64,000 bases of DNA from SAR86 cluster bacterium (GTDB lineage: Bacteria; Pseudomonadota; Gammaproteobacteria; Magnimaribacterales; Magnimaribacteraceae). The notes beneath the pieces are model-generated. The model had not been told where the DNA came from. It did not search any database and saw nothing but the letters and a program-made list of their open reading frames with translations. The first letter of the stretch is position 1. Each line of letters starts with the position of its first letter. The stretch is from NCBI GenBank assembly GCA_029268615.1, contig JAQWNM010000008.1, forward strand, positions 1 to 64,000. The letters run 5' to 3'. Positions 49,996 through 64,000 of the stretch are shown piece by piece. The translations under genes and the position numbers were made by a program.

Positions 49996-50772
49996 TTATT
50001 CCCAATCTCCCGTCATGCCTGCACTTAGATCTGCGGTTTTTCCTCCGTCTGCTGCAATACATTCCCCTGTTATAAAACTAGAATCAGAGCTTAATAAAAA
50101 CCTAGCTATCGTAGCCATTTCCTCAGGTTCAGCTATTCTCTTTAGTGGGATTGAATTTGCTGTTGAATCAAGTAATTCCTGAGTATTGAGCATAACTTTA
50201 CTAGCTTCAGTCAAAACAGCACCTGGAGCAATACAATTAACTCTTACATACGGTGCAGCTTCTATTGCAGCTGTTTGAGTAAGGCTAATTAACCCTGCTT
50301 TGGCAGCTGCATAAGCACCTAAAGTAGAAGTGCCTCTTAAACCAACAACCGAACTAATATTAACTATAGAACCTTCCTTTTCAGCCATCATATAAGGTAC
50401 CACTTCCCTAATACCTACAAATGCCGCATCCAGAGAAACTGTAAAGTTTTCTCTCCATTCCTCTAATGTTAAATCTTTAATTAATCCTCCATGGATGGAC
50501 ATTGCGTTATTAACTAGACCATCGATTTTGCCCCATCTCTCTTTATATGATTTTAAGCACTTTATAAAACTATCTTCGTCACTAATATCAATAGAACAGA
50601 TCTCTACATTTCCTCCTAACTTTTTAATTTCATCCGCTACTGAGATTAGTGCATCCTCTCTTCTTCCTAAAATAGCAACATGAGCTCCAGATTGTGAACA
50701 TTCTTTTGCTATAGCTGCCCCTATACCCGACCCCCCCCCAGTAATAATTATTTTTTTATCTTTCATCATCAT
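49996..50772 (-). CDS. SDR oxidoreductase
   Basis: This 258-residue classical SDR has TGGGSGIGAAIA (about 11-22), NNAMSIHGG, catalytic Ser in NISSVVGLRG, and YAAAKAG for Tyr/Lys. RVNCIAPGAVLTEAS and GECIAADGGKT are standard FabG/3-ketoacyl-reductase-like segments. The second of three adjacent SDR-OYE genes, it follows the next SDR by 6 bases. The substrate is unknown, but co-transcription with a dienoyl-CoA-reductase-like flavoprotein suggests cyclic or unsaturated acyl substrates. Confidence 0.87.
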   Translation of the reverse strand: MMMKDKKIIITGGGSGIGAAIAKECSQSGAHVAILGRREDALISVADEIKKLGGNVEICSIDISDEDSFIKCLKSYKERWGKIDGLVNNAMSIHGGLIKDLTLEEWRENFTVSLDAAFVGIREVVPYMMAEKEGSIVNISSVVGLRGTSTLGAYAAAKAGLISLTQTAAIEAAPYVRVNCIAPGAVLTEASKVMLNTQELLDSTANSIPLKRIAEPEEMATIARFLLSSDSSFITGECIAADGGKTADLSAGMTGDWE

Positions 50773-50778
50773 AGTAAA

Positions 50779-51534
50779 TTAATGCATATAAGAACCGCCA
50801 TTAGGCGATAAAGTTTGACCTGTAAAGAAACTAGAATCATCAGAAAGAAGAAAAAGACTTGTTCTAGCTACTTCTTCTGGCTGTCCGAGCCTTCCTAGAG
50901 GAATAGATGCAGCAAGAGAATCTTGATATTCTTGTGGAATACTATCCATCATTCTTCCAGAAATTGGGCCTGGACAAATTGCATTTACTCTAATACCTTT
51001 TGAACTTAAGTTCAGTGCTAGTGCCCTTGTAAAGGACAAAAGAGCTCCCTTTGATGTGCAATAAGCTAATGGTCCATCTCCAGTGTAAGCAGAAGTACTA
51101 GAAATATTAACTATAGAACCTTTAGTTTTATTTTCAAACATCAACCTTACAGCTTCTCTTGTTATATAAAAAGCTCCATCAAGATTTACACCAATGACCC
51201 CTCTCCAACCTTCATCATTTGTTTCATGAATTTCTGCGTTCTCACCATCACCAGGAGATCTGCCGATCCCAGCATTATTAACAACGCCATCAATTCTTTT
51301 ATAAGAAGCCTTTATTTCAGCAAACATATCCATAACCATTGAACTATCTGAAATATCCCCAGCATAAACCTGATGGGTGCCTCCTTTGAGCATCGACAAA
51401 GTATTTTTTAGATCAGATTCATTTATATCATTTAGCATTAATGAAGCTCCCTCATCTGCAAATATTTTCGCTGTTTCTCTACCCATCCCAAAACCAGCAC
51501 CACTTATTAAAATAACTTTATCTCTTAATCTCAT
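50779..51534 (-). CDS. SDR oxidoreductase
   Basis: This 251-residue classical SDR starts MRLRDKVILISGAGFGMGRETA, and has NNAGIG, catalytic Ser in NISSTSAYTG and YCTSKGA for Tyr/Lys, with RVNAICPGPISGRM. Its start overlaps the upstream OYE-type gene by 4 bases, so the two are coupled. It probably reduces or oxidises a hydroxyl in the same pathway. Confidence 0.87.
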   Translation of the reverse strand: MRLRDKVILISGAGFGMGRETAKIFADEGASLMLNDINESDLKNTLSMLKGGTHQVYAGDISDSSMVMDMFAEIKASYKRIDGVVNNAGIGRSPGDGENAEIHETNDEGWRGVIGVNLDGAFYITREAVRLMFENKTKGSIVNISSTSAYTGDGPLAYCTSKGALLSFTRALALNLSSKGIRVNAICPGPISGRMMDSIPQEYQDSLAASIPLGRLGQPEEVARTSLFLLSDDSSFFTGQTLSPNGGSYMH

Positions 51535-53678
51535 GATTTTACCTCTACTAAATTTCTCGCAATTTCCCTTGCTCCTTTAATTGCACCTTCAATGTAACCT
51601 ATATTATAACAATCGCCTACTACTTGAGTTTTGATATCTAAGCTCTCAAGTTTTTTGGATAAAAGATTATCTGACTCTGCTCCTGTAGCAATAATAACTT
51701 GATCTGCTTTGCAATCATGGCTCATCCCATTTGAAGTATAAAGAATGTTAGTTTTATTAATTTTTTCAATCCTTGCCCCTAAAACTAAATTAACGCCCTT
51801 TTCCTTTAATTCATGAATTAACCTAGCTCGTCTAACAATACTTAAATTGGTGCCTAAATTATTTGTAGATTCCAAGATTGTTATTTTTCTTCTCCGTTCT
51901 GTTAGAAATTCTGCTAACTCTAGACCCACTAAGTCGCCTCCAATAATTGTTATATTTCTAGAAAAAGGCATCCAAAATCTACTAACAAATCTTAAAAAAG
52001 GAATATTTCTTAATAATTGACTCGCTCGACCTAACCTCAATATTAAATTACTAGAGAATGATAATTTTTTTAATATCTTAGTTTCTTTACTAAAAAGCAA
52101 ACTTCTAAGTTGTTCACCGTCAAAAACATGAGGTAAATCTTTTCCAAGGATTTTAGGCGAGTTTCTAATAGCACCAGTTGCAATGACAACTAAATCGGGA
52201 TTTAGACTCTTTATTTCTTGAGAAGTTGCTAACTTATCTAACTTTATCTCTACATCACTATTTTTAATAAAGTCTTTTAAATAATTAATGAATTTTAAAT
52301 TTGGATCATATGCTAATCCTGCAATCCTTGCTGTGCCCCCTAAATCTTTTTCTTTTTCCCAAAGACTAATTTTGTGACCTTGTATAGAAAGTAATCTTGC
52401 TACTTCCATACCGGCTGGTCCTCCACCTACAATTATCACATTGAGTTTTTTCTTAACCTTCTTTAATAGATCTTGATCTTCCTCTTCATAACCTAGGCTT
52501 GAATTAACTGCGCAAGACATAGGTCCATTTATAAAAATTTTACTAACGCAAACATAACAATAAATACAAGGCCTTATAGTTTTATCTAGTCCATTTACCA
52601 CTTTTTTAGGTAGGTCTGGATCTGCCAATAATTTTCTTCCTAAAGCTAAAAAATCAAAATCCTTTTTTTGAATACTCTTCTCCGCTAAACCTAGCTCCAA
52701 TCTTCCTACGGCAATAATTGGTATTTTTACAGATTTCTTTGCGAGTTTGGCAAATTCAAGAAACCCTCCTGGTTCATGAACTAAAGGACCTTCTGTGAAT
52801 GCTATCCCTATATTACTATTTCCATAGGCACTTACATCCAAAGCATCAGCCCCGGCATTTTCAGCTATTTTTGCTGTTTCAATAAAATCATCTGTTGTTA
52901 AGCCATTCTTTAGTCTAAATTCTGCAGCATCAAGCCTAACTAGAATGGGAAAATTTATACCAACCTCATTCCTTATTGACTGAATTATTTCTTCTAATAA
53001 TTTAGCTCTTTTCTGAGGTGATCCGCCGTATTTATCTTTGCGCCTATTTATGGAAGGGGATAAAAAACTTGAAATTAAATAACCATGTCCAGCATGAATT
53101 TCTAATGCATCAAATCCTGAAGTTTTTACCCTTCTAGCAGCCTCTACAAAATAAACTATTTCTCTATCTATTTCTTCTAAAGATAATTCATGATATCTAG
53201 GTCCTTTCCCATCAGGCCCTGCTGATTTTACAAAGGTCGCAATCTCATCTTGGGTAAGAATTTCAATTAAATCACTTTTTTCTTTTTCAGGGATTGACGG
53301 AACCAGTATTGGCCTGCCAGCCACTACATCTTCTTGAGAGACCTTACCACTTTGATTTAACTGAGCGGCAATCTTTGAATCATATGCATGCACTCTATTT
53401 GTTAAGTCTAAAAGATCTGGAATAAATTCATCCTTTGATAGTCCAATCATATTAGGCATAGATGAGCCTAATGGCCAACTAACAGAAGAAGTTTCTAATA
53501 TTATTAGTCCTGCACCTCCTTTTGCTCTCGCCTCAATATAAGTCTTTAGTTTTTCACTTACTTTACCTGTCGAATGAGCAAAATTTGATCCCATAGGAGC
53601 TAAAATCATACGGTTCTTTAATTCCATTTGGTTTATAGAACCTGATGATGATAGAAAGGGATAGTTAGTATTTTTCAT
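51531..53678 (-). CDS. NADH:flavin oxidoreductase / 2,4-dienoyl-CoA reductase-like (OYE family, FadH type)
   Basis: This 715-residue enzyme has an N-terminal Old Yellow Enzyme TIM barrel (about 1-360: LKNRMILAPMGS, ALEIHAGHGYLISSFLSP), then a 4Fe-4S Cys cluster (CIYCYVCV ... MSCAVN, about 370-388), and a FAD/NAD domain (GGGPAGMEVARLL, later GGDLVGLELAEFL). This architecture is that of FadH and of related enone and bile-acid reductases. It likely reduces a C=C bond in a cyclic or unsaturated acyl compound. It is coupled to the SDR downstream and follows the SnoaL-like gene by 25 bases. Confidence 0.92.
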   Translation of the reverse strand: MKNTNYPFLSSSGSINQMELKNRMILAPMGSNFAHSTGKVSEKLKTYIEARAKGGAGLIILETSSVSWPLGSSMPNMIGLSKDEFIPDLLDLTNRVHAYDSKIAAQLNQSGKVSQEDVVAGRPILVPSIPEKEKSDLIEILTQDEIATFVKSAGPDGKGPRYHELSLEEIDREIVYFVEAARRVKTSGFDALEIHAGHGYLISSFLSPSINRRKDKYGGSPQKRAKLLEEIIQSIRNEVGINFPILVRLDAAEFRLKNGLTTDDFIETAKIAENAGADALDVSAYGNSNIGIAFTEGPLVHEPGGFLEFAKLAKKSVKIPIIAVGRLELGLAEKSIQKKDFDFLALGRKLLADPDLPKKVVNGLDKTIRPCIYCYVCVSKIFINGPMSCAVNSSLGYEEEDQDLLKKVKKKLNVIIVGGGPAGMEVARLLSIQGHKISLWEKEKDLGGTARIAGLAYDPNLKFINYLKDFIKNSDVEIKLDKLATSQEIKSLNPDLVVIATGAIRNSPKILGKDLPHVFDGEQLRSLLFSKETKILKKLSFSSNLILRLGRASQLLRNIPFLRFVSRFWMPFSRNITIIGGDLVGLELAEFLTERRRKITILESTNNLGTNLSIVRRARLIHELKEKGVNLVLGARIEKINKTNILYTSNGMSHDCKADQVIIATGAESDNLLSKKLESLDIKTQVVGDCYNIGYIEGAIKGAREIARNLVEVKS

Positions 53679-53703: not shown

Positions 53704-54318
53704 TTATTTAACTTTTATTTTTGGGATTTTACTACTCCTCCTTAAGGTCATAAGGAATTTTTCGGCATCTATAGGAGGGTTTACATCTGTTAAGTTATTT
53801 TTACCAGCCCAAAATTCTTCCCAAGAAGGCCATAGAGAATGAAATTCTCCTTCATATCTCTCTATGGAAGGCCATCTCATCTTATTTATTCCTAAAGGAG
53901 GACTATTTAAGTCTGAAGCATACCAATATAAAGGCAGTCTTCTCTTAAAAAACCATTCTTGATTTAAATAAATGTAGTCATCCCAATACATCATTTGCAT
54001 AATGATCCACTCGTTATTAGTTTCATGTTCATTTTTTGAGTAAACAATACCATGAGCATTTGATGGATCAGTAAATTCAATTATATGATTACCTGTATGA
54101 TGAGATGTGCCAGTAAACTGATCTCTTAATGTTGAATCAAACCAATTTTTTAATGCCAATCTACCTGATTTATTCTTTCCAGCTTTGACATCCTCTGGAA
54201 ACAAGGAAACTAAGGCATCTAAATCTCTAATATCTAAAGCTAATGAGTATTTAGCCACTAATTGTTTGATGGAGTCTAAAGATTCTAACCTTTCAATTCT
54301 TTCTTCTAATGACTTCAT
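53704..54318 (-). CDS. SnoaL-like (NTF2 superfamily) protein
   Basis: This 204-residue protein has the SnoaL_4 opening ERIERLESLDSIKQLVAKYS, then ALDIRDLDALVSLFPEDV and TGTSHHTGNHIIEF, as in SnoaL-like dehydratases. The long C-terminal part from GINKMRWPS is less typical. The fold is shared by ketosteroid isomerases and polyketide cyclases. It is placed between the amidase gene (9-base gap) and the OYE-type gene (25-base gap) in the catabolic block. Confidence 0.85.
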   Translation of the reverse strand: MKSLEERIERLESLDSIKQLVAKYSLALDIRDLDALVSLFPEDVKAGKNKSGRLALKNWFDSTLRDQFTGTSHHTGNHIIEFTDPSNAHGIVYSKNEHETNNEWIIMQMMYWDDYIYLNQEWFFKRRLPLYWYASDLNSPPLGINKMRWPSIERYEGEFHSLWPSWEEFWAGKNNLTDVNPPIDAEKFLMTLRRSSKIPKIKVK

Positions 54319-54327
54319 AATTATAAG

Positions 54328-55758
54328 CTAAGAACCTGCATAAACTGGAGGTCGCTTATCTTTCCATGGCCTTGCAACCTCTAGCTGTGAAGCCAAGGAT
54401 AGCAATAATGCATCATCACCAAATTTTGCACTAAACATTGATCCTATTGGTAAATCTAAGTTACTCCAGTTTAATGGCACTGAAATACTGGGCTGTCCAG
54501 TTTGGTTATAAAGACCCGTAAAACCTGAATATGATAATAAATTATTTATATAAGTGCTTACATCCTTTGAAGACATATCAATTTCTCCTATCCTAACAGG
54601 AGGTTTATTCAATACTGGGCTTAGAATAACATCATAATTTTCCATAAAATTACCAAGAGTCCTTCCTGCCTGATGATTTAAGAGAGTTGCGTGAGCATAT
54701 TGATCTGCTGTGGCCTTTTTTCCGTTTTCATACATTCTATAAGTAATATGCTCTACATCACCCTCCTTAAGACTCCTTCCTAACTGTTGAGCTCTCATAT
54801 CTAAGGTTAATGCAACGTTTGCTGATATTATTGTACCCACAGCATTACCCAAAACCTCTACATCTAAATCAGGTGAAGCTAACTCTACATCATGTCCTAA
54901 TTCTTGACATAATTCAGCTGTATTCTTAATTGCATGAATAACTTCAGAATCTATTTCTTTGTCTTCGGGAAGAGATAAAGCAACCTTTAATTTCTTAGGA
55001 TAATTGGAGCAAGAAGATAAAAAAGTTTTCTTATTATGTGGAACTGAGTAAGGATCTCCCGGAGCAGGTCCAGAAGTGGCATCTAATAAGGCAGCTGAAT
55101 CTCTAACTGTCCGTGAAACACAGTGGCTAATAGATTGACCTGCCCAACCTTCCCCTCTATCTGGTCCAAATGGAGTTCTTGCCCTACTGGGTTTTAATCC
55201 AATTAAACCGCAACATGAAGCTGGAATTCTAATAGAACCTCCACCATCACTAGCATTAGCCATTGGTAAAACACCAGATGCTACAGCAGAAGATGCTCCG
55301 CCACTTGAACCACCTGAAGAATAGTCAAGATTCCAAGGATTTCTTGTAGGCCCATAAAGAGATGGCTCAGTAGTCACTGTTAAACCAAATTCTGGAGTAT
55401 TTGTTTTTCCAAAAATAACCAATCCTGCATTTAAGTATCTCTCCACCAAAGTACTATTATGATCAGCTATATTTTCTTTAAAAAAATTTGATCCATTAGT
55501 TAGCGCTGTCCCTGTAAGCATTAAGTGCAAATCCTTGAGTAAAAAAGGAACTCCCATGAAAGGACCATCTGGCAAACCTTTTGCTATTGACTTTCTAGCT
55601 TCATCATAGAGTTTATGCACAACTGCATTTGTTTGTGGATTAATGTTTTCATTTCTCTCTATAGCTTCATTAAGAAGATCCTCGGGTGACACTTCTTTAG
55701 ATTTAACTAAACTTGCTAGACCTATACCATCATATTTATCATATTCTTTAAAACTCAT
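54328..55758 (-). CDS. Amidase signature family hydrolase
   Basis: This 476-residue enzyme cleaves an amide or ester. It has the Lys-cisSer-Ser triad: Lys in VPFLLKDLH, the Gly/Ser signature SGGSSGGASSAVASG, and the nucleophilic Ser in SDGGGSIRIPASCCG. The overall length and TNGSNFFKENI region fit the amidase family, but the substrate cannot be told. It follows a dihydroorotase-type gene by 2 bases. Confidence 0.92.
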   Translation of the reverse strand: MSFKEYDKYDGIGLASLVKSKEVSPEDLLNEAIERNENINPQTNAVVHKLYDEARKSIAKGLPDGPFMGVPFLLKDLHLMLTGTALTNGSNFFKENIADHNSTLVERYLNAGLVIFGKTNTPEFGLTVTTEPSLYGPTRNPWNLDYSSGGSSGGASSAVASGVLPMANASDGGGSIRIPASCCGLIGLKPSRARTPFGPDRGEGWAGQSISHCVSRTVRDSAALLDATSGPAPGDPYSVPHNKKTFLSSCSNYPKKLKVALSLPEDKEIDSEVIHAIKNTAELCQELGHDVELASPDLDVEVLGNAVGTIISANVALTLDMRAQQLGRSLKEGDVEHITYRMYENGKKATADQYAHATLLNHQAGRTLGNFMENYDVILSPVLNKPPVRIGEIDMSSKDVSTYINNLLSYSGFTGLYNQTGQPSISVPLNWSNLDLPIGSMFSAKFGDDALLLSLASQLEVARPWKDKRPPVYAGS

Positions 55759-55760
55759 CT

Positions 55761-57092
55761 TTAACCTCTTGTAAATTCTATTTTTCTTCCTCTTACATTT
55801 TCTGAGACTTTTCCTTCACTATAAGCTATCTCTCCATTAATTAATGTCTTAATTATAGTAGAACTAAACTTATCGCCTTCAAAAGGCGACCAACCACATT
55901 TATATTCAAGATTCTCATCACTAATTAACTGTTCTTTTTCTGTATCAACTAGAACTATATCAGCCCAATAACCTTCCCTTAGAAACCCTCTTTCTTTGAT
56001 ATCAAATCTTTTGGCTACATTGTGTGAAGTTACCCTGGGGACATCTTCAAGAGATAAATCTCCCTCTTTATATAGTTCTAAAACACCCAATAAGGTATGT
56101 TGTATACTAGGCATTCCTGAAGGGCATGTAAAGTAAGGGTTCTCTTTAGCCTTTTTATCATGAGGAGCATGATCAGTAGCAACAAAATCAATTAGACCAG
56201 ATTTTAGAGCTTGTCTTAATGCCAATTTATCTTGTTGATCTTTAATAGACGGATTACATTTAATTAATGTACCTTTTATTGCATAATCAGATGAAGAAAA
56301 AAATAAATGTGGAATACATACTTCGGCAGTTATTTTCTTTTTTTCAATATTGTCATTCGAAAATAATAATAACTCTTCTTTTGTTGAAACATGCAAAATG
56401 TGTAAATTGGAATTAAATTTTGTAGCCAAGTCTACAGCTTTCTTACTTGAAGCTAAACACGCCTCTCTAGACCTAATGAATTCATGATTTTCTATGGGAA
56501 TATCTTCACCATATCTAAGTCTATATTCTTTTTCGAGAGAAAGGATCATTGGAGTATCTTCGCAATGAGTAGTAATTATAACCGGCGAATCCTTAAATAT
56601 GTTTTCTAAGCTGACAGGATTATCAACTAAAAGATTACCGGTCGAAGAACCCATGAAAACTTTTACACCACAAACTTCATAAGGGTTTATAGACCTTATT
56701 TCATCTATATTGGTATTACTAGTACCCATGTAAAAAGAGAAATTCGCATGTGAGTTATTGCTAGCTATTTCTATTTTTTCTTTCCATAGATCATGAGTTA
56801 ATGTTGGTGGAAGTACATTTGGCATATCCATAAAAGAAGTTGTACCTCCTGCAACAGCTGCTCTTGATTCAGAATATATGTCTCCTTTGTCTGTTAAACC
56901 AGGTTCTCTAAAGTGCACCTGATCATCTATAACACCTGGCATGAGAGTTAAGCCAGCGCCATCAATGAAATCCCCTTGAGGTTCTATTAATTTATCTATT
57001 TTTTCTATCTTGCCATTTTTAATTAAGATATCTTTTTCTTCTACAAGGCCCTCATTTACTACTCTGCTATTTATTATTGTGAGATTATTCAT
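55761..57092 (-). CDS. Dihydroorotase-like cyclic amidohydrolase, class I, first metal His replaced by Gln
   Basis: Dihydroorotase closes carbamoyl-aspartate to dihydroorotate; relatives open hydantoins or dihydropyrimidines. The 443-residue barrel has GGTTSFMDMPN, the Lys that is normally carboxylated (Lys144 in GVKVFMGSSTGN), HCED (His176), HVS (His234) and ATDHAPH. The first metal motif reads DDQVHFREPG (Gln58-x-His60) instead of HxH. From memory, Bacteroidetes dihydroorotases share this QVH form. It may be the cell's PyrC or a catabolic cyclic amidase; the amidase lies 2 bases away. Confidence 0.85.
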   Translation of the reverse strand: MNNLTIINSRVVNEGLVEEKDILIKNGKIEKIDKLIEPQGDFIDGAGLTLMPGVIDDQVHFREPGLTDKGDIYSESRAAVAGGTTSFMDMPNVLPPTLTHDLWKEKIEIASNNSHANFSFYMGTSNTNIDEIRSINPYEVCGVKVFMGSSTGNLLVDNPVSLENIFKDSPVIITTHCEDTPMILSLEKEYRLRYGEDIPIENHEFIRSREACLASSKKAVDLATKFNSNLHILHVSTKEELLLFSNDNIEKKKITAEVCIPHLFFSSSDYAIKGTLIKCNPSIKDQQDKLALRQALKSGLIDFVATDHAPHDKKAKENPYFTCPSGMPSIQHTLLGVLELYKEGDLSLEDVPRVTSHNVAKRFDIKERGFLREGYWADIVLVDTEKEQLISDENLEYKCGWSPFEGDKFSSTIIKTLINGEIAYSEGKVSENVRGRKIEFTRG

Positions 57093-57108: not shown

Positions 57109-58782
57109 TTATTTTGAAACATTTAAACCTGCCCTTCTACCCGAAAAGATGCAATCGCTGATTGATAAGCCGCTGACATAGATATTCGAACAAATACCAA
57201 CTGCAGTCCTTCCTGCTGCATACAATCCTTTTATATCTTCTCCCTTACAATCTTTAACATTGCCAGTTTCTTCATTTACCACCAAACCGCCTAAAGTTAA
57301 TACGGCGCACGGAAAATATTTACTGTCCACTGACACATCCATTGCATAGAAAGGACCTTTACTTATCTCCCTACAATCTTCTGAAGACTTACCAAATTTA
57401 TCTTTCTTCTTCCCTTTAGCAACTAAATTATATTGTTCTATTGATGAATATAGCTTTAATGGCGACATACCGCACTTTTTAGCTAAACCAGCAATGGTAT
57501 TTGATTTCTTTGAATTAAATAACATACTTAGTATTGCAGGGTTTCTCTGAAAAGGAAGAACTTTTCCCGGACCAATTTGTTTCCATGCCTCCTTCCTTAA
57601 AGAGCTATCCAGAATAAGAATAGCTTTACCTTCTTGCCTTTCACACATAGCATCTCCTAAAGTAGCTCCATAGACCATTTCATTTGAATATCTTGATCCT
57701 TCTTTATTAACAACTATTCCTTGACCCCATGCTAGAGGTGGGTTGAGAAACCTCCAAGCTGTAACTCTATCCATTAAATTAACGGCTGCGCCAACAGACT
57801 GCCCTAATCTTATGCCGGCACCGTTATCTCCTGTTGTCCCCAAAGGAATACCACCTTTGTATTTAGGAGCATAATAGCTCACCATCTTCTTGTTAAAAAT
57901 AAAACCTCCAGAGGATAAAACTACTCCCTTTGATGCTTTTATTAATTTTTTTATTCTAACTTTTTCTTCAATCTTAATAGCCTTATTTCTGTAGTAATTT
58001 GCTAGTGGCCTTATATACATTTGAAGAGCCTGTGCCCTCTGAGAATAAATTTTATGCAGCTTAGATAGTCTTGTTCCAGGTGGCATATGAAGGACTTCAA
58101 CTCCAATAATCTTATTTCTTCTATTAACAATAAGATTAGTAACTTCAGTTTGAAATAGAGTTTTGACTCCTTTCTTTATGGCTGACTCTAATAAAGGATT
58201 AAAAATTGCTATTCCAACTCCAGTCGCTAAAGATCTTCCTTTTATGTAGCCTTTGTGCCCTCTGGGAGCTGGCTTTGCTATTTTTGCATAACTTGGAACA
58301 AGGGAATTATCTGAATGATAAAGAAAATATTGCTTATTAGGATATGAAGTTTTTTTTGTATAAGTGGATGAATTAAACTTAACTCCATGACCAATCAGCC
58401 ACTCAAGATTAGACGGGCTCTCTTCGCAAAACTTATGCAAAGTTGAATCTTTAACAACTCCATCAGTTTCTATTTTTAAATATTTATACATTTCCTCTAC
58501 TGAATCCTTAACCTTAGCTTCTTTCTGAATTGAAGTTCCGCCACCGGCATAATAAATACCTCCGCTAGCTGCAGTTGCGCCTCCTCCAAAAAATCTATCT
58601 ATAACTAATACTTGTTTTTGATGGTCTGAAGCTTCAAGAGCAGATGCTATTCCTGCACCTCCACATCCCACTATAAGAACATCTGTCACTTCATCCCATT
58701 GAAGTTCTTTTTCAGATTGAGGTTTTAGAGGTTCTTTAATCTCTGAAAACCAATGATCATCTAATGGTGTTAAATTACTCAC
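57109..58782 (-). CDS. FAD-dependent oxidoreductase, 3-ketosteroid dehydrogenase-like
   Basis: This 557-residue flavoprotein begins with the dinucleotide loop DVLIVGCGGAGIASALEA (about 34-51) and GGGATAASGGIYYAGGGTS. It closes with LYAAGRTAVGICSNIYVSG and SISDCIFSGRRAG, a tail resembling the 3-oxo-5alpha-steroid 4-dehydrogenase group. A substrate-domain insertion lies between. Members dehydrogenate ring A of steroids or reduce C=C bonds, but sequence alone does not fix this one. It is between the Smr-like and dihydroorotase genes. Confidence 0.85.
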   Translation of the reverse strand: MSNLTPLDDHWFSEIKEPLKPQSEKELQWDEVTDVLIVGCGGAGIASALEASDHQKQVLVIDRFFGGGATAASGGIYYAGGGTSIQKEAKVKDSVEEMYKYLKIETDGVVKDSTLHKFCEESPSNLEWLIGHGVKFNSSTYTKKTSYPNKQYFLYHSDNSLVPSYAKIAKPAPRGHKGYIKGRSLATGVGIAIFNPLLESAIKKGVKTLFQTEVTNLIVNRRNKIIGVEVLHMPPGTRLSKLHKIYSQRAQALQMYIRPLANYYRNKAIKIEEKVRIKKLIKASKGVVLSSGGFIFNKKMVSYYAPKYKGGIPLGTTGDNGAGIRLGQSVGAAVNLMDRVTAWRFLNPPLAWGQGIVVNKEGSRYSNEMVYGATLGDAMCERQEGKAILILDSSLRKEAWKQIGPGKVLPFQRNPAILSMLFNSKKSNTIAGLAKKCGMSPLKLYSSIEQYNLVAKGKKKDKFGKSSEDCREISKGPFYAMDVSVDSKYFPCAVLTLGGLVVNEETGNVKDCKGEDIKGLYAAGRTAVGICSNIYVSGLSISDCIFSGRRAGLNVSK

Positions 58783-58787
58783 TATAT

Positions 58788-59012
58788 TTATAACTTTTGA
58801 ATCTTTATCTTGCCATATTCTAAACCTTCACCCGAATAATAATTTACAGAGTGTCTCTTTAATACGCTCAAAACAAGATTTATCATCGTACTGCTATTTC
58901 CGCAAATGATAGTTAAAGGTAATAAGTTTTGATTTAAAAAAATAAAATTCTCTACTAGAATATCTACTTCATTATGCTTTATTCCGTGTAAGTCTAAAAT
59001 ATGATTGCCCAT
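58788..59012 (-). CDS. Small Smr-domain-like protein
   Basis: This 74-residue protein has the DLHG opening of the Smr domain (ILDLHGIKHNEV) and the later LTIICGNSSTMINLVLSVLKRH where Smr proteins have a Gly-rich nucleic-acid-binding turn and helix. Stand-alone Smr domains are predicted nickases or RNA-cleaving proteins. It is the first of the run of minus-strand genes and is 5 bases from the flavoprotein gene. Function is uncertain. Confidence 0.72.
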   Translation of the reverse strand: MGNHILDLHGIKHNEVDILVENFIFLNQNLLPLTIICGNSSTMINLVLSVLKRHSVNYYSGEGLEYGKIKIQKL

Positions 59013-59272
59013 TAGTACTTAAATTTTATATGTAGATCCTTAAATTTCATGAAGAATGTTAGAATACCCTGTAATTTTAAGATTATATTTATTCTAATTT
59101 GTATTAGTTTCTTAAAGTAAAGTCTAAGAAATTATCAAACCTAAACATGTCTATATTATCATTCATGCTCTATATTCCATTTTTAAGTTAATTATAACTA
59201 ACTTTATGTTTGTAGCATTTAAATCAAAAATCTATAATCTGCCAAATAAATTTTATTACGAATATTAAAAAT

Positions 59273-61789
59273 ATGAAGATTTTGTACAGAAGATTCACTG
59301 CCTTTGCATTAATTTATACACTATTGGTAATTTCTCAGGCTACCTTATCTGATGAGATAGAGGAAGATAATCAACCGAAAGATTCTAATAAAGAATATGT
59401 AAAAGAAATGAATCATTACGAGGGTTTGATAGATATTTATCAGAATCCAAAAAATGCAGAAACATATTTTAAAATTAAGAAAGATCAGCTCAATCAAGAA
59501 TATATCTATTTTTCTCATGTAATAGATGGCATAGTTGAGGGGCGAAAAAATAGAGGAAGTTACCTAGATAATGGACTAATAAAGTTTGTTAAAATCTTTA
59601 ATTCAATAAGACTAATAAGAATAAATAGTTCCTTTAAGTATGATGAAGATAATGCACTATCTAACTCTCAGGGAGCAAATATCTCAGATGCTATCATTGA
59701 AGTCTTTCCAATAAAATCTGAAAACGAAGATGAATATATAATTGATGTAACATCACTTTTTTTATCTGAAAGTCTCACAAACATTAAGCCTTTACCTGAT
59801 CCTGAGAACCCTCATTTAAAAGGATTAAAATGGGGAAAAATTAATTCTAAAAAATCTCTTATTTCTAGAATACAAAATTATCCTAATAATTCTGACCTAG
59901 AAGTTGAATATTTATATGAAAATTCACCTATCTCCGAATCTTATGGTAAGGATAAATTTGAAGACATAATTGATTCAAGGAATATTATTCTTTCATTGAG
60001 GTATAGCTTTATAAAACCTCCCTCAAATAACTTTGAACCAAGATATGCTGATCAGAGGGTGGGATTCTTTAGTCAACGTATCACTAATCTAACTTCTAAA
60101 GATATTACTCCTTATGCAGATCTTATACACAAATGGTTTCTTGAAAAGAAAGAACCTGATAAAGAATTTTCTGAGCCAATTAAGCCAATTACTTTCTGGA
60201 TAGAAAATACCGCACCTAAAGAATTAATACCTTATATAAAAGAAGGCGTTTTAGCTTGGAATAATGCTTTCAAAAAGGCAGGTTTTTTAAATGCCCTGGA
60301 TGTAAAATTACAGCCTGATGATGCTGACTGGGATGCAGGGGACATCAGATATAATGTAATTAGATGGACTTCCTCTCCCAAACCGCCATTTGGTGGTTAC
60401 GGGCCTAGTTTTGTCAATCCAAGAACAGGGGAGATATTGGGTGCTGACATTATGCTGGAATGGGTCTATCTTACAAATAGACTTTTTGTTGATTCAATCT
60501 TTTCATATGAAAGCTATAATTCTATTGATTCATATTCTAACTGTTCAATTGATTCAATAACTCAAAGAAGTAATTTTCTAGCTACTTTGGTATCGAACTC
60601 TTCATCAGAAACGGAAAGTAAGATCATTGAGCAAGGTATAATTTCATTAGTTCTTCATGAAGTGGGTCACACCTTAGGTTTAAATCATAATTTTAAAGCT
60701 AGTTACTTACATGATCCTGTATCGATACATGATCAAAGTATAACTAGTAAAGAAGGAGTAACATCATCTGTAATGGATTATGCTCCTACTAACCTAGCAC
60801 CTTTAGGCAAGGAGCAAGGCGATTATTATGATACTTTTCCTGGTGTTTATGATGACTGGGCGATTGAATTTGCTTATACACCAGATTTAGGCTCAAATTC
60901 TATAGAAAAAATTTTATCTAAATCAGTAGACCCAAAATTAATGTTTGGAAATGATGCTGACGATATGAGAGGTCCAGGCAGAGGTATTGATCCAAGGGCT
61001 ATGGTTAGTGATTTGTCTAATGATCCAATTAAATATGCCGAAGAAAGAATCCAATTAATAAATAAAACGCTATCAGACTTACCTGAAAAGTTTAATAAAA
61101 AAGCAACCAGCTGGGAACAATATAGAAAAGCTTATATGCTATTAACTACTGACATAGGCAGATCTTTAGAAACTGCTTCACGCTACATAGGAGGTGTTTA
61201 TGTTAATCGAAGTTTTCCAGATCAAGATACGGATTTAGAACCTTTTGAACCAGTCCCATATAAAGTTCAAAAGAAAGCAATGCAAATGATTGCAAAGCAT
61301 GCTTTTGCACCAGATGCATTTACTCTAGATAAAAATTTAGCGAGTAAACTGCAACTAGAAAGAAGGGGGTTCGATTTTTATGGAGAACATGAAGACCCTC
61401 AAATTCTTAGAAGAATACTGTCTATTCAAACAGCCGTTATGAACCATTTATTGGATGGCTGGATGATGTACAGACTTTCAGATAGCGAATACTACGGAAA
61501 CAGCTACAGCTCTTCAGAGATGCTGAGAGATTTAACTGATGCCATCTTCTTAGAAGATGTCTCTTCACCAATAAACGCAATGAGAAGAAATTTACAAATT
61601 AGATATGTAAGAAGGCTACTAAATATTCTATCTCAAGATTATTATGATGATTTATCAGTTACTGCAGCTTATAGTTCTTTAAGATATATTGAAAAGATAA
61701 TTAGAAAAAACTCTAGAGATCAACCAACAATGGAACAAAGATCATTATTATCTTGGCTTATAGAATCTGGATTAGATAGAGCTCAATAA
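59273..61789 (+). CDS. Secreted zinc-dependent metalloprotease (DUF5117/DUF4953 type)
   Basis: This 838-residue protein has an N-terminal signal peptide (cleavage around residue 26). It carries the extended zinc motif HEVGHTLGLNH (462-472) with a Met turn in SSVMDYAP (about 498-505), as in metzincins. The long region before it (about 40-300) fits DUF5117/DUF5118-type domains, and a C-terminal helical domain follows. It should degrade protein outside the cytoplasm. It interrupts the minus-strand catabolic block, and its end is 1 base from the convergent Rieske gene. Confidence 0.9.
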   Translation: MKILYRRFTAFALIYTLLVISQATLSDEIEEDNQPKDSNKEYVKEMNHYEGLIDIYQNPKNAETYFKIKKDQLNQEYIYFSHVIDGIVEGRKNRGSYLDNGLIKFVKIFNSIRLIRINSSFKYDEDNALSNSQGANISDAIIEVFPIKSENEDEYIIDVTSLFLSESLTNIKPLPDPENPHLKGLKWGKINSKKSLISRIQNYPNNSDLEVEYLYENSPISESYGKDKFEDIIDSRNIILSLRYSFIKPPSNNFEPRYADQRVGFFSQRITNLTSKDITPYADLIHKWFLEKKEPDKEFSEPIKPITFWIENTAPKELIPYIKEGVLAWNNAFKKAGFLNALDVKLQPDDADWDAGDIRYNVIRWTSSPKPPFGGYGPSFVNPRTGEILGADIMLEWVYLTNRLFVDSIFSYESYNSIDSYSNCSIDSITQRSNFLATLVSNSSSETESKIIEQGIISLVLHEVGHTLGLNHNFKASYLHDPVSIHDQSITSKEGVTSSVMDYAPTNLAPLGKEQGDYYDTFPGVYDDWAIEFAYTPDLGSNSIEKILSKSVDPKLMFGNDADDMRGPGRGIDPRAMVSDLSNDPIKYAEERIQLINKTLSDLPEKFNKKATSWEQYRKAYMLLTTDIGRSLETASRYIGGVYVNRSFPDQDTDLEPFEPVPYKVQKKAMQMIAKHAFAPDAFTLDKNLASKLQLERRGFDFYGEHEDPQILRRILSIQTAVMNHLLDGWMMYRLSDSEYYGNSYSSSEMLRDLTDAIFLEDVSSPINAMRRNLQIRYVRRLLNILSQDYYDDLSVTAAYSSLRYIEKIIRKNSRDQPTMEQRSLLSWLIESGLDRAQ

Positions 61790-61790
61790 A

Positions 61791-62777
61791 TTAGATATAA
61801 AACTGCCCTACCCATTTTCTAAACTTATTTATTGGTCCATCCCCATCACAAAGCATAGGGTTTGGCCAATAAGATTTATTTTCCCATATGGGGATATCAT
61901 CATTAATGCCATTTGCTATACCATCTATGATGGCCATTCCTAGGGTGTCCTCTATATCTTTACTAACTTTCATTTGCCATCTTAATATAGAATTTTCTTT
62001 ATCAACCGGACATGAAGCGTTAACCATAACAAACTCTCCACCATCAGGAGGTAAATTTACCATCCTTAATAATACTTGACCCAACCCCCAAGATTCTCTG
62101 GTAAAAGTAGTAGTAAATTGTTCTTTATATGAACCCTTATATTTATCTGAAACACTATCACTATTTTCTGGATCCATTAATGTCTCGGCAACAGTTTTTC
62201 TATAGATTCCATCTATATATGCGTCTGTTTCAGGTAGTGAAGGAGATTGATGAACAGTTGGGAAATGGGCTTGATCTACATCATTTTCTGCAATCTCTTG
62301 AAGGCAAGTGCCAATATTATATTCAAAGAAATGAGATTTACCCCATTTATCAGAATCTCTATTAAATTCCTTAACCTCGGGTAGCTCAAAATAAGGTTCT
62401 TTACCTTCTGCATGATACCAGGCCATAATGATACCGTTTTGTTCAACAAGTTTATAAGTATCTAGAACTTGGTTTTGCGCTTTTATTGGAATTGAATCCG
62501 CGTAAGGAACATCTACACAAACTCCTTCTCCACTCCAAGCCCATCCATGAAATGGACAAACAATGGAATCTTTTGATACATGGCCACCATGACCTAAATG
62601 TGCTCCTAAGTGAGGGCAAAAAGGAGCAACCGCTTTTGACTGACCACTTTCAGTTCTAAATAGAACTACATCTTCTCCACAAAATTTTACTGTTTTAACT
62701 TCTCCTTCTTTAAGTTCATGACTCCAAGAAAGACAAAACCAGCCGTGAGGAATTTCTAAAGGTATTCTTGCATTCAT
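61791..62777 (-). CDS. Rieske [2Fe-2S] ring-hydroxylating oxygenase, large-subunit-like
   Basis: This 328-residue protein has the Rieske site C54-x-H56 and C74-x-x-H77 (FCPHLGAHLGHGG, then CPFHGWAW). The mononuclear iron site follows in NDVDQAHFPTVH (Asp168 bridge, His171, His176). The pattern resembles single-component steroid oxygenases of the KshA / cholesterol 7-desaturase type. Electrons would need a separate reductase, not seen here. An SDR gene ends 8 bases upstream in the same operon. The substrate is unknown. Confidence 0.92.
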   Translation of the reverse strand: MNARIPLEIPHGWFCLSWSHELKEGEVKTVKFCGEDVVLFRTESGQSKAVAPFCPHLGAHLGHGGHVSKDSIVCPFHGWAWSGEGVCVDVPYADSIPIKAQNQVLDTYKLVEQNGIIMAWYHAEGKEPYFELPEVKEFNRDSDKWGKSHFFEYNIGTCLQEIAENDVDQAHFPTVHQSPSLPETDAYIDGIYRKTVAETLMDPENSDSVSDKYKGSYKEQFTTTFTRESWGLGQVLLRMVNLPPDGGEFVMVNASCPVDKENSILRWQMKVSKDIEDTLGMAIIDGIANGINDDIPIWENKSYWPNPMLCDGDGPINKFRKWVGQFYI

Positions 62778-62785
62778 AAATTCTC

Positions 62786-63664
62786 CTAAAATAAATCTGG
62801 AATATCTGGGTTGGTTCTATTTATTAAACTATCTACAAAATCTTTATATGATTTATCGCTTTCTGGATTTTCTGGCATTAACCAATATTTATCATCTTTT
62901 ATTCCATTTAAACAAAATTCAGCAACTTCATCGGGATGAGTAGTTTTTAGTTCTTTACCCATTGAGCTAACCATTTCTTTCATTGCTTCTAGTGATTCTA
63001 TTTTAAAAACTGGTTCAGATTCTTGTGCTAAGTTTTCAGGTCTATTTCTCTCGGAACCATACAAACCTGTTTCAACTACATGAGGTCCAGGAAATAATAT
63101 TGAGACTCCTATAGACGCCTGCAAAGATAGAAGTTGAAAATATAATGCCTCTGATATCGTAGCAACTGAAGATTTAGTAGTCGCATATATAGGAGTAGAA
63201 GGATAAGTTACTAATACTCCATTTCCTGAGCAGGTATTAATAACTCTGGCTTCTTCTCCATGAGCAAGCATTAAAGGCACGAAAACTTTAATTCCATGAA
63301 TGACTCCCCATACATTTACTTTAAAAGCCCACTCCCAATCGTTAATAGACAGATCCCAGAGAGGGAAAGAAGCCTCTTGTGGAGCTATTCCTGCATTATT
63401 AAATAATAAATGTACATTACCTAAATCATTATTGACTGAGTTACTTAGGTCTTTAATAGAATCAAGTTCTGCAACATTTGTAACATAAGTCTTAACATTA
63501 AGGCCCTCCTCATTTAAGAGATTTGCAGCATTATCTAAAGCATCCTCTTCTATGTCTGCTAAAGCAACCTTAGCACCTTCTTTAGCTAAAAAACGTCCTA
63601 AAGATAATCCCACCCCGCTGGCACCACCAGTAATAACTGCCACTTTATTTTTATAATTTTTCAT
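62786..63664 (-). CDS. SDR oxidoreductase
   Basis: This 292-residue SDR has TGGASGVGLSLG (about 12-23), NNAGIAPQ (about 89-96), catalytic Ser in NTCSGNGVLV and YATTKSS for Tyr/Lys. The C-terminal part after the active site is longer than in FabG-like proteins and includes HVVETGLYGSERNRP, typical of a group found near oxygenases in steroid- or alkane-degrading bacteria. It lies between the Rieske oxygenase and the acetoacetate-decarboxylase-like gene (12-base gap). Confidence 0.87.
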   Translation of the reverse strand: MKNYKNKVAVITGGASGVGLSLGRFLAKEGAKVALADIEEDALDNAANLLNEEGLNVKTYVTNVAELDSIKDLSNSVNNDLGNVHLLFNNAGIAPQEASFPLWDLSINDWEWAFKVNVWGVIHGIKVFVPLMLAHGEEARVINTCSGNGVLVTYPSTPIYATTKSSVATISEALYFQLLSLQASIGVSILFPGPHVVETGLYGSERNRPENLAQESEPVFKIESLEAMKEMVSSMGKELKTTHPDEVAEFCLNGIKDDKYWLMPENPESDKSYKDFVDSLINRTNPDIPDLF

Positions 63665-63676
63665 AAAATTCTTGAC

Positions 63677-64000
63677 TTACTTTTTTGGTCCTCCATTTTC
63701 TCCAGGCCACCTCGTTCCACCAATAGTATCGGCAAAAGGCCAAAACTGTTTTCCATCTAGTTCACCTTCTAGAGTTATTTCTCTTCCAAGAAAAATTGGT
63801 GTCCATAGTTGAGTTGACACTTTTTCTTTAATTGGTAGAAGAGTGGCAACGGGATCCCAAGGACTATCTCTTAAAATAAGTTCACCTTCTAATTCCTGCA
63901 TAAAAGCAGTCCCGTATGTACTTTTGACTCTGACTACATGTGGAGGAAAATCGTATTTATTTTCAGCCATATCGACAGATCTCAATGATTTTATCCACCA
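63677..64000 (-). CDS. Acetoacetate-decarboxylase-like protein (5' part outside window)
   Basis: The frame runs open to the right edge with no stop, so the start lies outside; a TTG at 63985 and an ATG at 63970 are internal or uncertain. The visible 108 residues match the C-terminal barrel of the acetoacetate decarboxylase family: YGTAFMQELEGELILRDSPW, DPVATLLPI, and QFWPFADTIGGTRWPG. The catalytic Lys region cannot be judged with certainty. Family members decarboxylate or bind 3-oxo acids, and relatives occur beside Rieske oxygenases and SDRs. It is the gene before the SDR in a shared operon. Confidence 0.75.
   Translation of the reverse strand, partial: WWIKSLRSVDMAENKYDFPPHVVRVKSTYGTAFMQELEGELILRDSPWDPVATLLPIKEKVSTQLWTPIFLGREITLEGELDGKQFWPFADTIGGTRWPGENGGPKK

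What the first reader, a model, noticed from the sequence alone, without database searches (positions are those of the whole stretch)
57109..64000. Candidate steroid-like or alicyclic degradation cluster
A 3-ketosteroid-dehydrogenase-like flavoprotein, a Rieske ring oxygenase, an SDR and an acetoacetate-decarboxylase-like protein lie within 7 kb. A SnoaL-like protein and a FadH-like flavoprotein with two SDRs lie just beyond. These families co-occur in steroid and cyclic-terpenoid pathways. Each call is at family level, so the substrate is open, and a metalloprotease gene splits the block.
Basis: inference. Interest (0 to 1): 0.55.

Follow-up and report, generated by a model that had tools for sequence, protein, structure and literature searches.

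The report
Steroid-type ring-degradation cluster in SAR86
A free-living ocean bacterium of the SAR86 group carries genes that look made to break down steroid-like ring compounds, and relatives carry versions of one oxygenase in which the built-in electron-relay part has lost its iron-sulfur site while the reaction site is perfectly kept.

Summary
The genes are as described, and the cluster runs on past the window: the decarboxylase-like gene is complete at contig position 64450 and is followed by a cytochrome P450. The genome belongs to the SAR86 order. The flavoprotein is Delta4-(5alpha)-ketosteroid-dehydrogenase-like and keeps three catalytic positions (identities recalled). The Rieske protein is in the KshA_C family but falls in a well-supported sister clade outside characterised KshA. 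True KshA is elsewhere in the genome, beside hsaC/D/F/G-like genes; two Delta1-KstD-like genes are also present. Two things look new. First, the hsa-linked KshA is split into a Rieske-only and a catalytic-only protein across SAR86. Second, the window-type oxygenase exists in SAR86 as two alleles at one locus: in 9 of 21 sister-family genomes the [2Fe-2S] ligands are lost, while the mononuclear-iron motif is invariant and the catalytic domain stays under very strong purifying selection. The Rieske-domain allele has been exchanged by recombination between near-identical flanks. I infer that the oxygenase can take electrons from a Rieske protein in trans, most likely the split KshA subunit. The substrate remains unproven.

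The parts
57109..58782 (-). Delta4-(5alpha)-3-ketosteroid-dehydrogenase-like flavoprotein (557 aa)
   Evidence: Best PDB match 4AT0 at 204 bits, Delta1-KSTDs at 77 or less. Y371, Y535, S537 align with chain Y339, Y486, S488 of 4AT0, i.e. native Y319, Y466, S468 (that these are the catalytic residues is recalled). Co-occurs with the Rieske module in SAR86.
61791..62777 (-). KshA-sister Rieske oxygenase (328 aa), intact Rieske domain plus KshA_C catalytic domain
   Evidence: Outside the KshA clade in trees. Orthologs in SAR86.
62547..62618 (-). Rieske [2Fe-2S] loops CPH...CPFH (residues 54-77); the part that is lost in the Rieske-dead alleles of relatives
62250..62285 (-). mononuclear-iron motif NDVDQAHFPTVH (residues 165-176); the third ligand is taken to be D294 at 61896-61898
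   Evidence: ligand role from the aligned KshA residues and general knowledge of Rieske oxygenases
62786..63664 (-). SDR of the conserved Rieske-SDR-ADC module (292 aa)
63677..64000 (-). acetoacetate-decarboxylase-like protein, cut by the window end (complete at C8:63677-64450, 257 aa)
   Evidence: Pfam ADC 113 bits; K104 aligns with the PKK lysine of solved ADCs
59273..61789 (+). DUF5117/DUF4953 met-zincin metalloprotease; also next to the Rieske gene in G002; probably not part of the pathway
55761..57092 (-). dihydroorotase-family amidohydrolase
   Evidence: PRK09236, 642 bits, cut-off 535
54328..55758 (-). amidase
53704..54318 (-). SnoaL-like protein
51531..53678 (-). FadH/BaiCD-like OYE flavoprotein; same family as the OYE beside the SAR86 module
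50779..51534 (-). SDR
49996..50772 (-). SDR

Best explanation
This is a catabolic gene cluster of a SAR86-order marine bacterium for steroid-type polycyclic compounds. It feeds, or runs beside, a 9,10-seco-type pathway coded elsewhere in the same genome. Likely steps (inferred): the SDRs oxidise ring hydroxyls to ketones; the flavoprotein puts a 4,5 double bond into a 5-alpha-reduced 3-ketone; the KshA-sister Rieske monooxygenase and the P450 hydroxylate the skeleton at positions other than C-9; a beta-keto acid so formed is decarboxylated by the lysine-dependent ADC-like enzyme. Oxidative removal of a C-4 methyl group of algal 4-methyl-5alpha-stanols would fit, but is a guess. The real 9alpha-hydroxylase is a split KshA at the hsa-type locus. 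In relatives the window-type oxygenase can lose its own [2Fe-2S] cluster and most likely takes electrons from a Rieske protein in trans. Shown: gene content, families, conserved synteny, tree placement, allele exchange, selection. Inferred: reactions, substrate, electron donor.
For: Families. Delta4-KSTD is the best solved relative, with three matching positions. ADC lysine kept. Module conserved in SAR86 and in part in Sphingopyxis. The Delta4-KSTD-like gene is in 29 of 203 order genomes and in 19 of the 23 with the full-length Rieske ortholog; in 13 of those 19 both lie on one contig within 30 kb (my count). Genome has HsaC-, HsaD-, HsaF-, HsaG-like genes, split KshA, a further KshA-clade gene cut by a contig end, and Delta1-KSTD-like genes. 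SAR86 steroid catabolism predicted in print.
Against: The Rieske protein is outside the KshA clade. HsaC/HsaD matches are below NCBIfam cut-offs, and the HsaC-like protein scores higher to biphenyl-2,3-diol dioxygenase (241 against 209 bits). The Delta4-KSTD-like gene is not beside the module in all genomes (240 kb apart in G056) and is absent from 4 of 23. Genus-level kinship inflates co-occurrence. An amidase and an amidohydrolase in the block have no clear place in a steroid route.
Confidence: 0.62

Rival explanations
1. The module degrades a non-steroid alicyclic or terpenoid compound (carotenoid or hopanoid fragment, diterpene, polyketide-like ring). The KSTD- and KshA-like folds were recruited for another ring ketone.
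For: The P450's best solved relatives are EpoK and macrolide/terpenoid-type P450s. The Rieske clade is distinct from KshA and includes Pseudomaricurvus alkylphenolicus and Myxococcota. Amidase and amidohydrolase in the block.
Against: Co-occurrence and frequent linkage with the Delta4-KSTD-like gene, and presence in the same SAR86 genomes as split KshA.
Confidence: 0.3
2. For the Rieske-dead alleles: they are decaying pseudogenes.
For: Ligands are lost in different ways, and nonsynonymous divergence in the cluster loops is raised (mean pN 0.219 against 0.063).
Against: Full open frames in 9 of 9. Catalytic-domain dN/dS is 0.01-0.08 in the 14 closest dead pairs, near that of live alleles. The iron motif is kept in 9 of 9. 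Loop dN/dS is well under 1 (0.045-0.285 in the 13 of those 14 pairs where it could be computed). The gene stays in an intact cluster. The model folds well in the N-terminal domain.
Confidence: 0.07
3. The Rieske-dead enzymes no longer need Rieske electrons. The mononuclear iron does a reaction in which the substrate supplies all electrons (ring cleavage, isomerisation) or works with a small-molecule reductant.
For: No dedicated partner gene beside the dead alleles. Dead and live alleles share the same neighbours.
Against: Live alleles at the same locus, with near-identical neighbours and catalytic domains, keep the cluster, which argues for the same redox reaction. A stand-alone Rieske protein exists in 8 of 9 dead genomes.
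Confidence: 0.2
4. The window Rieske protein is an ordinary KshA (9alpha-hydroxylase) and the cluster a plain kst/ksh cluster.
For: KshA_C domain; KshA is the best solved relative.
Against: Two trees put it outside KshA. The same genome has two members of the true KshA clade.
Confidence: 0.08

Closest known systems
3-ketosteroid-Delta4-(5alpha)-dehydrogenase of Rhodococcus jostii RHA1 (PDB 4AT0; organism recalled)
   Same: Best solved relative (204 bits); the three active-site positions as I recall them are kept
   Different: 557 aa with an insertion; Gram-negative marine bacterium; beside a Rieske/ADC/P450 module; activity untested
KshA, 3-ketosteroid 9alpha-hydroxylase oxygenase
   Same: Same two-domain architecture and KshA_C family; best solved match (143 bits)
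   Different: Sister clade, not KshA; linked to ADC-like, SDR and P450 genes; Rieske domain eroded in 9 of 21 sister-family orthologs
SdmA 4beta-methylsterol monooxygenase with SDR SdmB (partner recalled)
   Same: Best NCBIfam hit of the window Rieske protein (60 bits); a Rieske + SDR pair next to a decarboxylase-like protein recalls C-4 demethylation
   Different: Far below the 600-bit cut-off; SdmA-like proteins form their own clade outside KshA + window type
NdmC/NdmD caffeine demethylase system
   Same: An oxygenase without its own Rieske cluster, which lies on another protein (PMC4408171, passages)
   Different: There the Rieske domain is fused to a reductase and a GST-like protein is needed; here a cluster-free Rieske fold is retained and live and dead forms swap at one locus
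Micromonas chlorophyllide a oxygenase in two polypeptides
   Same: Rieske oxygenase carried on two chains (PMC9615114, passages)
   Different: Eukaryotic pigment enzyme; the SAR86 split KshA lies in an hsa-type cluster
SAR86 steroid catabolism (PMC4810484; PMC11582366)
   Same: Predicted hsa, ksh and kst genes in SAR86 (passages)
   Different: The passages I read mention neither a split KshA, nor Rieske-dead alleles, nor the ADC/SDR/P450 module

Membership tests
Delta4-(5alpha)-KSTD (flavoprotein) | Closest to 4AT0 among solved flavoproteins | tested here: met
   204 bits; next best flavocytochrome c fumarate reductase 103, Delta1-KSTD 77
Delta4-(5alpha)-KSTD (flavoprotein) | Catalytic Tyr319, Tyr466, Ser468 (recalled; the paper was not held) | tested here: met
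   Y371, Y535, S537 by pairwise alignment
Delta4-(5alpha)-KSTD (flavoprotein) | Activity on 5alpha-3-ketosteroids | not testable with these tools
   Needs an assay
KshA (Rieske) | KshA_C catalytic domain | tested here: met
   114 bits, cut-off 23.3
KshA (Rieske) | Falls within the clade of characterised KshA | tested here: not met
   Separated at 100/100 and 100/98
KshA (Rieske) | Next to hsa/kst genes | tested here: inconclusive
   Delta4-KSTD-like gene 3 kb away, but no hsa genes seen in C8:48000-71488
SdmA 4beta-methylsterol monooxygenase | NCBIfam NF052579 over cut-off; clusters with SdmA-like proteins | tested here: not met
   60 of 600 bits; separate clade (the one over-cut-off SdmA, L165, was not recovered into the tree)
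9,10-seco steroid pathway (genome level) | KshA, HsaC, HsaD, KstD present | tested here: met
   KshA clade members; HsaC-/HsaD-like below equivalog cut-offs; Delta1-KSTD-like, also below cut-off
9,10-seco steroid pathway (genome level) | HsaA/HsaB hydroxylase present in the own genome | not tested
   Not searched
Acetoacetate-decarboxylase family | Pfam ADC and Schiff-base lysine | tested here: met
   113 bits; K104 aligned to the PKK lysine (role recalled)
Functional Rieske domain in dead alleles | Cx1H and Cx2H ligands | tested here: not met
   First His lost in 9 of 9, second His in 5 of 9, second Cys in 1 of 9

The most novel reading that the evidence does not exclude
In SAR86 the Rieske domain of a ring-hydroxylating oxygenase has become an exchangeable part. 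A cluster-free version circulates by homologous recombination as an alternative allele at a fixed locus, in front of a fully constrained catalytic domain. The enzyme then runs on a shared Rieske electron carrier supplied in trans, the stand-alone subunit of the split KshA. Rieske oxygenases here would be modular, with the iron-sulfur carrier shared between pathways.
Probability: 0.35. Interest if true: 0.82.

Novelty: new variant of a known kind. Interest (0 to 1): 0.6.

Why it matters
SAR86 is among the most abundant surface-ocean bacteria (PMC11582366 abstract), and its carbon sources are poorly known; a conserved steroid-type module narrows them. More generally, Rieske oxygenases are treated as needing a [2Fe-2S] cluster beside the catalytic iron, normally on the same chain. 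An allele that lost the cluster ligands yet keeps an invariant catalytic site (9 of 21 genomes), spread by recombination, and a second oxygenase split into two proteins in the same organisms, would be a natural system for asking how electrons reach the iron and whether the carrier can be shared.

Tried and rejected
KshA and SdmA membership of the window Rieske protein were tested and rejected. In one search hits under 95 bits, L154 and the Rieske-only L077 frame were left out. In one search the true SdmA (L165), L166 and L175 did not come through my ORF/hmm filter, so the SdmA side is represented by nine SdmA-like proteins only. The tree program warned of long branches in both.

A local partner gene specific to dead alleles was looked for and not found; the desaturase-like gene is in 3 of 9 dead loci only. 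Presence of the split KshA does not separate dead from live genomes (stand-alone Rieske protein in 8 of 9 dead and 11 of 12 live; my count).

Papers: SAR86 + F420 gave six papers, none on F420 in SAR86 by title or abstract start (listing only). Phrases for Rieske-less oxygenases gave none. SAR86 + Rieske gave one paper. The 4AT0 paper was not found or held, so its catalytic residues are recalled. L060 and L061 are fragments whose Rieske state is unknown.
Full report
What is in the window. The window is the first 64000 bases of a 71488-base contig (C8) of a 1.77-Mb genome. The ADC-like gene is completed just outside. It is followed on the same strand by a P450, a membrane protein with no Pfam hit, an alpha/beta hydrolase with haloalkane-dehalogenase-like matches, and an F420H2-dependent quinone-reductase-like protein.

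Whose genome. Relatives found by the Rieske gene are mostly titled SAR86 cluster bacterium. G056 has one contig of exactly the length of CP097973.1 (SAR86 isolate D2474-A1-1), and G056 lies in the same order as the window genome.

Flavoprotein. The best solved relative is Delta4-(5alpha)-KSTD 4AT0 (204 bits), ahead of fumarate reductases (103) and Delta1-KSTD (77). Query Y371, Y535 and S537 align with the positions I recall as catalytic in 4AT0. A paralog (60% identical) and two Delta1-KSTD-like genes lie on contig C9 at 127-136 kb.

Rieske protein. KshA_C 114 bits, PDB KshA 143 bits. Trees of the catalytic domain and of the whole protein put it in a clade with SAR86, Cellvibrionaceae, Myxococcota and Acidimicrobiales proteins, sister to and outside KshA. 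The split and fused KshA of SAR86 fall inside the KshA clade with Cupriavidus, Rhodococcus and Mycobacterium proteins.

Other ring-degradation genes. Contig C9 carries, in one run, an extradiol dioxygenase (HsaC 209 bits, BphC-type 241), an HsaD-like hydrolase (228 bits, above BphD 159), acetaldehyde dehydrogenase and 4-hydroxy-2-oxovalerate aldolase (over cut-off), and a KshA split in two frames. In G059 and G056 the same region continues into genes that look like ipdA/ipdB/ipdC, echA and fadE. Those ipd names are my reading of the sequences; NCBIfam gave no hit at 1e-60 for the two CoA-transferase-like proteins. Own-genome Rieske domains number 20.

Split KshA. The Rieske-only frame (about 132-154 aa) has both ligand pairs. 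It precedes a catalytic-only frame (277-290 aa) that keeps a short beta-barrel remnant but no cluster loops, with 196 bits to KshA_C. In a search of 199 order genomes, 34 had any match at 1e-20. I count 27 of these with a match over 180 bits in a frame of about 209-290 aa, which I read as the split type (two are cut by contig ends); six genomes have a 348-364 aa fused form. In 274 class genomes only the own genome showed the split form, and two others had fused relatives. The AlphaFold model of the catalytic half is poor (pLDDT 68) except its N-terminal part; Foldseek ranks KshA first.

Rieske-dead alleles. Of the 33 loci from genome contigs, 31 cover the Rieske loops; nine of these, all SAR86 (L051-L059), have lost the ligand set. 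A separate check on the 21 order genomes with a full ortholog outside the window's family gave 9 dead and 12 live; these are probably the same species set. The first ligand His is lost in 9 of 9, the second in 5 of 9, the second Cys in 1 of 9; the iron motif NDVDxAHFPxVH is kept in 9 of 9. Residues that could bind metal and are invariant in the dead N-domain were nearly all already there in live proteins; no new full ligand set appears.

Allele exchange. Along L053 (dead) against L049 (live) identity is mostly 86-99% in the flanks, falls to 65 and 49% over the cluster loops, is 76-84% through the rest of the first 800 bases and then recovers. In an N-domain tree the dead form is one clade (100/100, one change). 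In a C-domain tree it needs six changes and is one clade in 0% of bootstraps. AU tests reject a single dead clade for the C-domain (p 0.00014) and for SDR+ADC neighbours (p about 1e-64). The groups were named from the motif before these trees. Whole-gene, the dead form is one clade while SDR, SnoaL and TonB-receptor neighbours mix dead and live (the ADC part of that output was partly cut).

Selection. NG86 over all pairs: loops pN 0.219 (dead, 36 pairs) against 0.063 (live, 66 pairs), pS 0.66 and 0.69; catalytic part pN 0.079 and 0.061. Synonymous sites are near saturation for most pairs, so single dN/dS values are rough; the closest pairs give catalytic dN/dS of about 0.00-0.03 in both classes. 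So the dead loops evolve faster but are constrained, and the catalytic domain is hardly relaxed.

Structure. A model of the dead protein L052 has pLDDT 85, with the N-terminal domain mostly 90-98; Foldseek ranks KshA5 first (TM 0.83). Live sequences were in the alignment, so the fold of the dead domain is not independent evidence.

Electron source. In the closed genome G056 the Rieske-domain proteins are the dead one, a third KshA_C oxygenase, the stand-alone split-KshA subunit and a 196-aa frame that I read as the bc1 Rieske protein. A stand-alone Rieske frame is found in 8 of 9 dead genomes (the ninth is 63% complete) and 11 of 12 live ones. The trans-carrier idea is thus possible but not shown; live genomes have the same carrier.

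Module and linkage. SDR, ADC-like, P450, SnoaL and OYE recur around the SAR86 Rieske gene; the ADC-like proteins of the window type and of the others are only 25-27% identical, and the window's own SnoaL protein did not cluster with theirs. The Delta4-KSTD-like gene is in 29 of 203 order genomes. Of 23 genomes with the full Rieske ortholog (21 plus G000 and G002), 19 have it, 13 of them within 30 kb on one contig; these genomes are close kin.

Known or new. SAR86 steroid catabolism is in PMC4810484 and PMC11582366 (passages). Rieske function on a separate protein has precedents (NdmC/NdmD; Micromonas CAO; passages). I found no paper on Rieske-less alleles or split KshA in SAR86 in searches, in a library that lacks most subscription journals.

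Noticed in passing
L051-L059 (for example L058:9989-10987): Rieske-dead alleles of the KshA-sister oxygenase, exchanged by recombination (part of the extended finding, outside the given coordinates).
   Followed up: yes
L018:6897-8187 (G000 C9), L073, L075, L077: KshA split into a Rieske-only and a catalytic-only protein inside an hsa-type cluster.
   Followed up: yes
L014:13771-17772; also L072, L074, L076: F420-biosynthesis-type genes (CofC and CofH/FbiC domains; CofD/CofE-like by eye) near a third KshA_C oxygenase; cofactor F420 in SAR86 seems little described.
   Followed up: partly
G000 C17:64-83 kb and C5:17-40 kb (L010-L013): Dense clusters of ring-hydroxylating Rieske proteins with SnoaL-like, SDR, VOC-like and TonB-receptor genes in a 1.77-Mb genome: 20 Rieske domains in all (gene names by eye).
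   Followed up: no
L152, L153 (Sphingobium and Novosphingobium plasmids): Relatives of the third KshA_C family lie beside amidase or cyclic-dimer hydrolase, amidohydrolase, SDR and acyl-CoA ligase genes, a gene mix that recalls the window block.
   Followed up: no
window 59273-61789: DUF5117/DUF4953 met-zincin kept next to the Rieske gene also in G002.
   Followed up: no
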